From Hypomesus transpacificus (Eukaryota > Chordata > Actinopteri > Osmeriformes > Osmeridae): 64,000 nt of DNA. The notes under the pieces were generated by a model. The model was not told where the DNA came from and did no database searches. It saw only the letters and a list, made by a program, of their open reading frames with translations. Positions 15,181 to 18,100 of this stretch are shown here, piece by piece (within the stretch, counting starts at the first letter, position 1; every line of letters starts with the position of its first letter). The position numbers were made by a program, and so were the translations under genes. The stretch is from positions 62,001 through 126,000 of the forward strand of contig NW_025813735.1 of the NCBI RefSeq assembly GCF_021917145.1, read 5' to 3'.

Positions 15181-18100
15181 TTATTTGGCCATCATCTGTT
15201 TCTTGGTGTTCCTCTCAGGCCTCAGCAGGATGATGTAACACTTTGGGGCGAAGATGCAGACCAGAAGTCCGTAACTGGAGGCCAGGATGGCAAAGATCTC
15301 CACGGCAACCGTGAACTTCCCCGGAGAGCTGACGTAAGCTGGGATAAACGCCACCCACACGGTGCAGAAGATCAGCATGCTGAAGGTGATGAGCTTGGCC
15401 TCATTGAAGTTGTCTGGGAGTTTCCTGGCCAGGAAGGCCAGGAGGAGGCAGAGCGAGGCCAGCAGGCCGATGTACCCCAGGACCAGGGAGAAGCCCAGGG
15501 CCGAGCCCTCATCACAGAGCAGGATGATCTGGGCATCCTCATGGCTCATCAGTCTGTGAGGGGTGGGAGGGGCCACAGCCAGCCACACAACACAGATCAC
15601 CACCTGGACCGCAAAGGAGGACAGGCCAAGTTGAAACACACATTGGTCTGAAGCACACATTTGTCTGAAACACACTCAGATGAAACATACCCTCCACACA
15701 TAAGGACAGTGAATTCTTCTGGCAGATGGTTTTCTCCAAAGCGTACATAGGGGGATTTAAACCTACAACCTGATGATCCGCAGTCAAACACTCTACGTCT
15801 CACATGACTCAACACTTATCCTTACATGATTCAATCAACACTAATCTGGGTGTAATGTTGAAATAACAGTCACACTTCTAAAAGATACTCCTTGAAGTTT
15901 TCCTACCTGTACCAGTGTGCACATGAGGATGATGGCTCGTTGCTGTGGAGGCCCAAACCATTTCATGACATCACTTCCTGGAAGTGTAGCCCTGAAGGCC
16001 ATCAGCACCACTATAGTCTTCCCCAGAACACAAGAGATGCAGAGGACAAAAGTGATCCCAAACGCTGTGTGGCGCAGCATACAGGACCACTCAGAAGGCC
16101 GGCCGATGAAGGTGAGAGAACACAGGAAACACAGAGTCAGGGAGAAGAGGAGCAGGAAGCTGAGCTCTGAGTTGTTGGCCCTGACGATGGGCGTCTGTCT
16201 GTGGCAGGCGAATATGAGGAGGACCAAGGTGGTGCAGAAGGACCCCGTCAGAGCCAGGGCCAGCAGCGTGACGCCCATGGTGTCGCTGTAGGACAGGAAG
16301 TCCAACTGCCTGGGGATGCAGGCGGTACGGTCAGGGTTGGACCAGAACTCTGGCAGGCAGCGCACGCAGTCTATAGCATCTGGGGAAGCAGGAACCAGTG
16401 GTCAGACAGGAAGGACAGGAGGGATCATGGTCGCTACGGTCCGTCAGTGGGTCATCGTGGTGTTTAGTATTTCACAACGCCGCTTGGCAAGTTGTCTGAA
16501 ATCCAAACTTCCTTCCCTCCCTCTCTCTGAGATACAAGAGCCAGGTTTGGTACCTACACAGCTGCTACCAATTATCTAGAGGAAGGAAGAAAGTTAGACT
16601 AGAAAAAACTGCTATTCCCATGTCACCTGTCTCTTTACTCAGTAGTAATACGCACTTATGTATTGGGAAATACTCAATATTTTTCTGGCACACTAAATGG
16701 TAGTATAAGTAATAGAACATACTAAACCTTTTCCCCGGCATCTTCTGCTGTGCAGAGCACACAGTCTCACCTGTCTCATTGCTAATCTCCCCTGCTGTGC
16801 AGACCACACAGTCTCACCTGTCTCATTGCTAATCTCCCCTGCTGTGCAGACCACACAGTCAAAGCAGCATACAGGCAGGTTGGGCTTGATGGCCTTCCTG
16901 GTTCCTGGGAGGCAGCTGGAGCTACAGACGGAGAGGGGAGCCTGACAGGCAGGGAGAACACCAACTAAATAGGTCAGAGATCCCCAATAGAGGTCAGAGA
17001 AAGAGGTCAAAGGTCACCGGCTGGGGTAAAACAACACGACGAGACTGAATTTTACAATTTGATTAGAAAACCTAATAGAACTCAAAGAATTTGATTTAAA
17101 GTATTAATTTTAAGTACTGTGTAATCATAAAGCCAACCTGGTTATATTACTCTTTTCAACGTGACATAAAAGGTGGGGGTTTCCTTGATCTGCAGTCAAA
17201 TGCTGTTCCACAGAGCAAAACACATCCCATAATGAATACAATCTCAAATGTACCCAACATAACATGCTACAAACATGTTGAGCCATTAGAGAGGGTCTTA
17301 CTGTGGTCTGGTTGCTGCTCCTGACCATTAGAGAGGGTCTTACTGTGGTCTGGTTGCTGCTCCTGACCATTAGAGAGGGTCTTACTGTGGTCTGGTTGCT
17401 GCTCATGACCATTAGAGAGGGTCTTACTGTGGTCTGGTTGCTGCTCCAGACGATATCCGTCTCCTGGATCTGCAGCTTCCTCCTGGCCACGCTGATGGTC
17501 TGGTCAAACCTTCCCACCGTCACAAAGTCCACCTGGCCGTCGGCCCGTTCCTGCCAGCTCACCAGGTCGTACATGGCTACGGGGTCCCCGTTTTCGTCAA
17601 ACTTGGTCTCCTCGTTAAACGCGTTGGTGTAGTCCACCTGCTTCAGGTAATGCAGCAGCTAAGAACAATTCAAAAGGACGGAATGGGTTCAGCTCAGTGG
17701 TTGGAGCAGAGTGCGAATTATACAATGACAATCGGGGGGGTCAACTCCTTCTCCAGGGCGTGTATCGACCCCCCCCGATCTGTTGTTTTTACCTCTTTTG
17801 GGGGGGTCCAAGTCTTAATTAGGGGGTCAGACCCCCCCCTTCCCCCCCATAATTCGCACCCTGGGTTAGAGTATTTGCTTGCAGATCAAAACGTTAAAGG
17901 TCCAAATCCCACCTTGTGCAGAATGACGTTTTGGATAGATGACATTCGGTCTGCTAAATGACTACGTAATAATCCTTTCAAGAGATGGAGTTTTGTGAAA
18001 TCAAGTCCTACTTTCGAATTCTTTGCCAGTGCCAGTCCTGCCTACCTGCCAGGGCTGAAAGTTGTGTGCGTCTAGACAGGCCTGCAGAGGAAGCGGCCCG

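What the first reader, a model, noticed from the sequence alone, without database searches (positions are those of the whole stretch)
15181..16379. Gene C has a chimeric seven-helix domain, with an intron erased in the converted part
About 250 bp (roughly 16195-15945) matches genes D-H at around 97% over the stretch compared by eye, whereas the last exon is nearly identical to A and B. A and B have an intron just before [10 protein letters not shown] lacks it, as do D-I. This fits gene conversion from an intronless paralogue removing an intron, between genes in opposite orientation and over 16 kb apart.
Basis: partly seen in the sequence, partly recalled or inferred. Interest (0 to 1): 0.75.

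Follow-up and report, generated by a model that had tools for sequence, protein, structure and literature searches.

The report
Patchwork fish odour-receptor gene, two donors
One odorant-receptor gene of a fish-like gene cluster carries two borrowed patches in its membrane part, from two different groups of neighbouring genes, and the intron it lacks was probably never there rather than erased.

Summary
The chimera is real. The window is a cluster of family C odorant receptors (V2R/OlfC type). Gene C (minus strand, 11 coding exons, open 876-aa frame) has a 7TM region in four pieces: private sequence; about 254-260 bp of D-H type (16201/16194-15941; third positions 91% identical to D/F/G/H, 36-43% in the flanks); private sequence containing an intron; and an A/B-type end (from 15495; 302/309 identical). 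Permutation, silent-site and tree tests support both patches. A and B do have an intron before VRANNSELS that C lacks. 'Erased' is weakly supported: of the four other extra introns of A/B, C lacks three, in a region without a D-H patch; C has four of its own. C most likely never had that intron (my estimate 70-75%). The reverse is possible: without it C stayed open to exchange with D-H, while A/B show no 7TM exchange with them. Gene conversion among OlfC genes is already in print: a good new example, not a new kind.

The parts
15181..21583 (-). Gene C: family C GPCR, 11 coding exons, 876 aa, open frame
   Evidence: exon model and translation; Pfam ANF_receptor, NCD3G, 7tm_3
16202..16379 (-). 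C, private 5' part of the 7TM exon (up to TM1)
   Evidence: 59% to A/B, 50% to D/F/G/H
15941..16201 (-). D-H type patch (about ICL1-TM2-TM3-ICL2); 5' edge 16194 by blastn against D and by HMM, 16202 against F
16185..16186 (-). Site between these two bases where A and B carry the intron that C lacks
   Evidence: alignment column 192
15496..15940 (-). C private block around its own intron (about TM4-ECL2, plus the intron)
   Evidence: coding part 58% to A/B, 56% to D/F/G/H
15604..15906 (-). C intron at the LVQ|V position shared with A and B (303 bp; theirs 79 bp; no BLAST similarity)
15181..15495 (-). A/B type patch (about TM5-TM7 and tail), running 13 bases past the stop codon
   Evidence: 302/309 identical to A and to B; trees; 3' flank
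18128..18204 (-). Small further A/B-like stretch in C exon 3
   Evidence: 92-93.5% over 77 bp; windows
3542..3658 (+). Gene A intron before VRANNSELS (117 bp)
13256..13371 (+). Gene B intron before VRANNSELS (116 bp, 90.6% to A's)
35827..36740 (+). Gene D 7TM exon, uninterrupted; possible donor type
42817..43724 (+). Gene E 7TM exon, a second mosaic: D/F/G/H-like in about TM2-3 and TM5-7, private between
47364..48277 (+). Gene F 7TM exon, uninterrupted; shares the patch's 5' edge furthest with C
53291..54204 (+). Gene G 7TM exon, uninterrupted
60200..61116 (+). Gene H 7TM exon, uninterrupted

Best explanation
C is a separate, old receptor lineage of the cluster whose 7TM region has received two patches by non-reciprocal exchange (ectopic gene conversion): about 260 bp (TM2-TM3-ICL2) from the pool of D-H type genes, which have no intron there, and about 315 bp (TM5-TM7) exchanged with A/B. 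Shown: the mosaic, its edges, its presence at silent sites, and the conflicting placements. Inferred: the direction D-H to C (D/F/G/H carry this sequence in one continuous homogenised stretch, while in C it sits between private blocks), and conversion rather than crossing-over (opposite orientation, flanks kept). The intron before VRANNSELS was most likely gained in the A/B line after it split from C, so C never had it and nothing was erased.
For: Patch third positions: C to D/F/G/H 0.911 against 0.920 among D/F/G/H, and 0.36-0.43 in the flanks. Permutation tests. Tree tests. C has three bases in the patch found in none of D-H, all silent. Intron positions (alignment columns): A/B/C share 861; A/B only 306, 525, 768; A/B plus H 348; C only 254, 290, 355, 512. 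Ectodomain identity C to A/B 44-47%, C to D-H 40-43%. In the ectodomain (exons 2-5), 60-base windows of C at 80% or more to A, B, D, E, F or H were three, all A/B-like (G and I not in that call); blastn of the C region against the whole window gave no ectodomain hit above 79% to D-I. Passages of PMC1764893: six coding exons in all full-length zebrafish OlfC genes.
Against: In the patch tree C at the stem of D-H is not rejected (AU 0.33) and C beside D, E, F or H is accepted too, so neither donor nor direction is fixed by the tree. C shares one 7TM intron position with A/B, which would favour a common ancestor that already had 7TM introns. The patch crosses the intron site: the 17 bases on its 5' side equal F (17/17; A 12/17), though only the nearest three equal D without a mismatch; a former intron would have been overwritten. 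The three A/B exon-3 introns each lie within 16 codons of a C intron (chance 0.06-0.10 by two measures), which leaves a small opening for displaced common introns.
Confidence: 0.75

Rival explanations
1. One reading: the A/B/C ancestor had the intron before VRANNSELS, and conversion from a D-H gene without it removed it from C.
For: The patch spans the intron site (17 bases on the 5' side equal to F); D-H lack the intron; A/B/C share another 7TM intron position.
Against: C lacks three of the four testable A/B extra introns where no D-, E-, F- or H-like stretch was found, and has four of its own. If gains are exchangeable, the estimate for this intron being older than the split is (1+1)/(4+2)=0.33, or 0.17 if the shared position is a parallel gain, as the position 348 common to A/B and H may be (my own arithmetic).
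Confidence: 0.23
2. No exchange: the high identity in TM2-TM3 is shared constraint on a conserved segment.
For: TM2-TM3 and TM6-TM7 align closely to CaSR, so they are conserved in the family.
Against: Silent sites give the same result, third positions are 91% identical to D/F/G/H while A/B, also receptors of this family, are only 44% identical to C there, and the edges are sharp.
Confidence: 0.02
3. Assembly artefact: reads of D-H and A/B copies were merged into C.
For: The cluster has near-identical stretches (A 2399-3347 and B 12113-13061 at 99.9%).
Against: The patch has three bases found in none of D-H, all silent, and its best copy in the window differs at 8 of 260 bases (F); C stays open through both junctions over 11 exons.
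Confidence: 0.05

Closest known systems
[quoted passage not shown] passages read)
   Same: Same receptor family, same kind of test (Sawyer's method, GENECONV), paralogues of one subfamily
   Different: Here two donor types in one gene, mapped to single 7TM segments, with genes in opposite orientation; the words intron, exon and transmembrane do not occur in that paper's main text
Zebrafish OlfC repertoire (PMC1764893; passages read)
   Same: Family C olfactory receptors with extracellular and seven-helix parts
   Different: All full-length zebrafish genes have six coding exons with strictly conserved phases; B and C here have 11, and H has at least one extra
Poeciliid and anablepid LWS opsin gene conversion (PMC3087554; passages read)
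   Same: Teleost GPCR paralogues, partial conversion of a 3' portion, some copies tail-to-tail
   Different: Another receptor class; intron removal by a paralogue is not what those passages describe
Intron loss by recombination with cDNA in Dictyostelium (PMC4683709; passages read)
   Same: Conversion by an intron-free partner as a way to lose an intron exactly
   Different: The partner there is cDNA; here it would be a genomic paralogue, and the loss itself is not shown

Membership tests
Family C GPCR (V2R/OlfC type) | ANF_receptor, NCD3G and 7tm_3 domains in this order | tested here: met
   Pfam on the C protein
Family C GPCR (V2R/OlfC type) | Closer to CaSR than to T1R or mGluR among solved structures (criterion recalled) | tested here: met
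   CaSR E=1.3e-97, mGluR3 4.4e-48, T1R2 2e-33 (60 of 68 matched sequences shown, none named V2R or OlfC). This does not by itself separate OlfC from CaSR; the tandem cluster is the reason for OlfC
Family C GPCR (V2R/OlfC type) | Six coding exons as in zebrafish OlfC | tested here: not met
   B and C have 11 coding exons; A, cut at the window start, shows the same extra introns as B; H has one extra in exon 3. This describes the zebrafish set and is not itself required for family membership
Family C GPCR (V2R/OlfC type) | Expression in olfactory neurons | not testable with these tools
   no expression data
Gene conversion tract | Bounded stretch of high identity between low-identity flanks | tested here: met
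Gene conversion tract | Holds at silent sites | tested here: met
Gene conversion tract | Conflicting phylogenetic placement of segments | tested here: met
Gene conversion tract | Direction from donor to recipient | tested here: inconclusive
   stem and nested placements of C not separated in the patch
Intron loss by conversion | Intron present in the recipient before the event | tested here: inconclusive
   the intron map speaks against it; no outgroup genome was reached
Intron loss by conversion | Tract spans the intron site and the donor lacks the intron | tested here: met

The most novel reading that the evidence does not exclude
Introns newly gained inside the 7TM exon decide which paralogues may exchange sequence. 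A/B, with an intron before VRANNSELS, are shut out of the D-H homogenisation pool (10 of 10 A/B by D-H pairs show no significant 7TM fragment), while C and E, without it, carry its TM2-TM3 patch; C's patch stops 34 bases before C's own intron, beyond which the 7TM exchange of C is with A/B, which share that intron position. Intron gain would then be a way for a duplicate to escape concerted evolution.
Probability: 0.2. Interest if true: 0.6.

Novelty: new member of a known kind. Interest (0 to 1): 0.4.

Why it matters
It shows how a chemoreceptor cluster can keep the ligand-binding part diverse while sharing stretches of the membrane part, and it warns that relationships read from the 7TM region alone can be wrong; at least one survey used that region as its search query (PMC9018814, one passage read). 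The intron map is the more useful lead: two receptor lineages in one cluster seem to have gained introns separately, so introns as barriers to exchange becomes testable by comparing species.

Tried and rejected
Rejected: C as an A/B gene with one patch (private backbone). Rejected: simple constraint (silent sites). Considered and mostly rejected: intron sliding that would pair the A/B and C exon-3 introns (distances 16, 7 and 13 codons, one with a phase change; the residues between align to D, E, F and H in both; chance 0.06-0.10).

Faults in my own runs. The first topology test used constraints that did not exclude each other; one search replaces it. The HMM called a D-H segment at 16377-16334, because it accepted any of four variable bases; one search replaces it and still shows weak segments at 15915-15590 (A/B, posterior 0.80) and 15347-15327 (D-H, 0.70), on which I build nothing. 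The label 'x136 corrected' printed is a slip: the factor used is 28. One search stopped with an index error after the rows used. In one search the E and G rows were partly out of frame in exons 2-3, so their intron columns there are offset; C exon 1 and E exon 2 were reset; one search shows that one D edge (AG) and one E edge (TC) are still a few bases off. None of the positions used in the argument rests on these edges. Gene G was left out. The structure model of D's 7TM exon was poor (mean pLDDT 45.6); its helix limits serve only as a rough guide.

Relatives from elsewhere: none obtained. Scans of viral contigs (1 pattern match) and genome contigs (19) gave 0 confirmed relatives. No metagenome scan was allowed, and search_dna_similar (phages, plasmids, E. 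coli) was not used. By their descriptions none of the DNA collections here is one of animal genomes.

Full report
What it is. The window holds at least nine family C receptor genes or gene parts: A (cut at the window start) and B on plus, C on minus, D-H on plus, and I on plus, cut at the window end before its last exon. C has the domains of this family (ANF_receptor, NCD3G, 7tm_3), and its 7TM part is closest to the calcium-sensing receptor among solved structures. I call the cluster V2R/OlfC, and fish-like, from its tandem arrangement and recalled knowledge; the species is unknown to me.

The mosaic. I built exon models for A-H and a codon alignment of the 7TM exons of A, B, C, D, E, F, G, H (8 of 8 genes whose 7TM exon is in the window). 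Along it C falls into four blocks. Block I, 16377-16202: 59% to A/B and 50% to D/F/G/H. Block II, 16201-15942: 95.6% to D/F/G/H (third positions 0.911), 85% to E and 68% to A/B. Block III, 15941-15496, intron left out: 58% to A/B and 56% to D/F/G/H. Block IV, 15495-15187: 302 of 309 identical to A and to B, 77% to D. D/F/G/H among themselves are 95.3% in block II, so there C is as close to them as they are to each other. The A/B-like end runs 13 bases past the stop codon (one difference to A, none to B), after which C's 3' flank resembles a relic downstream of A more than A's own flank.

Tests. A Sawyer-type fragment permutation of my own on 436 polymorphic sites put C with each of D, E, F, G, H in block II and with A and B in block IV, at the floor p of 1/3001, uncorrected. 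On 108 sites in codons of one amino acid in all eight genes A, B, E, F and G stayed at the floor; C-D gave 0.0013 or 0.00033 and C-H 0.003 or 0.002, by scoring mode. With 5000 permutations and a factor of 28 pairs, CD, CF, AC and BC gave 0.006; 10 of 10 A/B by D-H pairs gave uncorrected p of 0.18-0.66; A-B gave 0.04 uncorrected. Trees were run on slightly narrower blocks (AU test). Block II rejects C with A or B (185 lnL units) and, weakly, with G (0.044); the stem of D-H and C beside D, E, F or H are accepted, so the donor cannot be named. Block IV rejects C with any of D-H (141-147). In block I, C with A, B, D, G or H is rejected at 5% by AU but not with E or F; in block III, C with D, F, G or H is rejected but not with A, B or E; the stem position is best in both. 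SH, the stricter test, rejects none of the placements in blocks I and III.

The intron. A (3542-3658) and B (13256-13371) have a phase-0 intron before [10 protein letters not shown] and D-H do not. Beyond the canonical positions, A/B have extra introns at alignment columns 306, 348, 525, 768 (this one) and 861; C at 254, 290, 355, 512 and 861; H at 348. So of the four A/B extra introns that can be tested outside the patch, C lacks three and shares one. The three lie in exon 3. Scanning exons 2-5 of C in 60-base windows against A, B, D, E, F and H (G and I not in the call), the only windows at 80% or more were three overlapping ones, all A/B-like, at 18204-18115; blastn against the whole window gave no hit of C's ectodomain to D-I above 79%. 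C and A/B ectodomains are 44-47% identical, C and D-H 40-43%, D-H among themselves 50-59%. BLAST found no similarity between C's intron at 861 and those of A/B, nor between H's and A/B's at 348. PMC1764893 (passages) states that all full-length zebrafish OlfC genes have six coding exons and that phases are strictly conserved, so the extra introns here are most simply lineage-specific gains. I estimate 0.17-0.33 for this intron being older than the A/B-C split, which is what erasure needs. On the other side, the patch does cross the site: C equals F at 17 of 17 bases on its 5' side, A at 12 of 17.

How it works. The likely mechanism is ectopic gene conversion: homologous repair of C copying from another member of the cluster. 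Crossing-over between genes in opposite orientation would invert the segment between them; here the flanks are kept. The nearest copy of the patch in the window, in D, is about 20 kb away; donors outside the window are possible. By alignment to CaSR (helix limits recalled) and a weak model, block II runs from the end of TM1 to the start of TM4, and block IV from TM5 to the tail. E shows a similar layout: D/F/G/H-like in about TM2-3 and TM5-7, private between. Exchange may be favoured there because conserved segments pair well, or kept there because these segments couple to common partners; I cannot separate the two.

Known or new. Conversion among OlfC genes is in print (PMC6588630, passages). 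I saw no description of a two-donor OlfC mosaic or of extra OlfC introns in the listings and in the passages opened from eight papers; most listed papers were not opened, the library covers only openly licensed papers, and two relevant ids were not held. It is a new example of a known process, with an intron pattern that deserves comparison across species.

Noticed in passing
window 42817-43724: Gene E is a second 7TM mosaic: D/F/G/H-like in about TM2-3 and TM5-7 with a private TM4-ECL2 block.
   Followed up: partly
window 2164-3347 and 12113-13061: A has exon 5 twice (2164-2287 and about 3100-3223), the second inside a block 99.9% identical to B over 949 bp, introns included: very recent copying between A and B.
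   Followed up: partly
window 4583-4808: Relic of a gene 3' end just after A: coding tail with an in-frame stop plus a flank that resembles C's 3' flank more than A's.
   Followed up: partly
window 17283-17451 and 16745-16860: Two of C's splice donors (exons 4 and 5) lie inside tandem repeats (42 bp x4.0 and 47 bp x2.5), so each donor sequence recurs.
   Followed up: no
window 51370-51650: Gene G exon 3 holds a G-rich tandem repeat with a change of reading frame: pseudogene or assembly error.
   Followed up: no
window 8221-8588, 506-791, 58610-58969: A/B and H have an intron at the same codon and phase in exon 3, absent in C, D, E and F; no intron sequence similarity found.
   Followed up: partly
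window 35437-35557, 52750-52873, 59882-60005: D, G and H encode nearly the same exon 5 peptide, another homogenised stretch.
   Followed up: no
window 37907-38898: Long repeat array between D and E with open frames on both strands, typical of a minisatellite rather than a gene.
   Followed up: no
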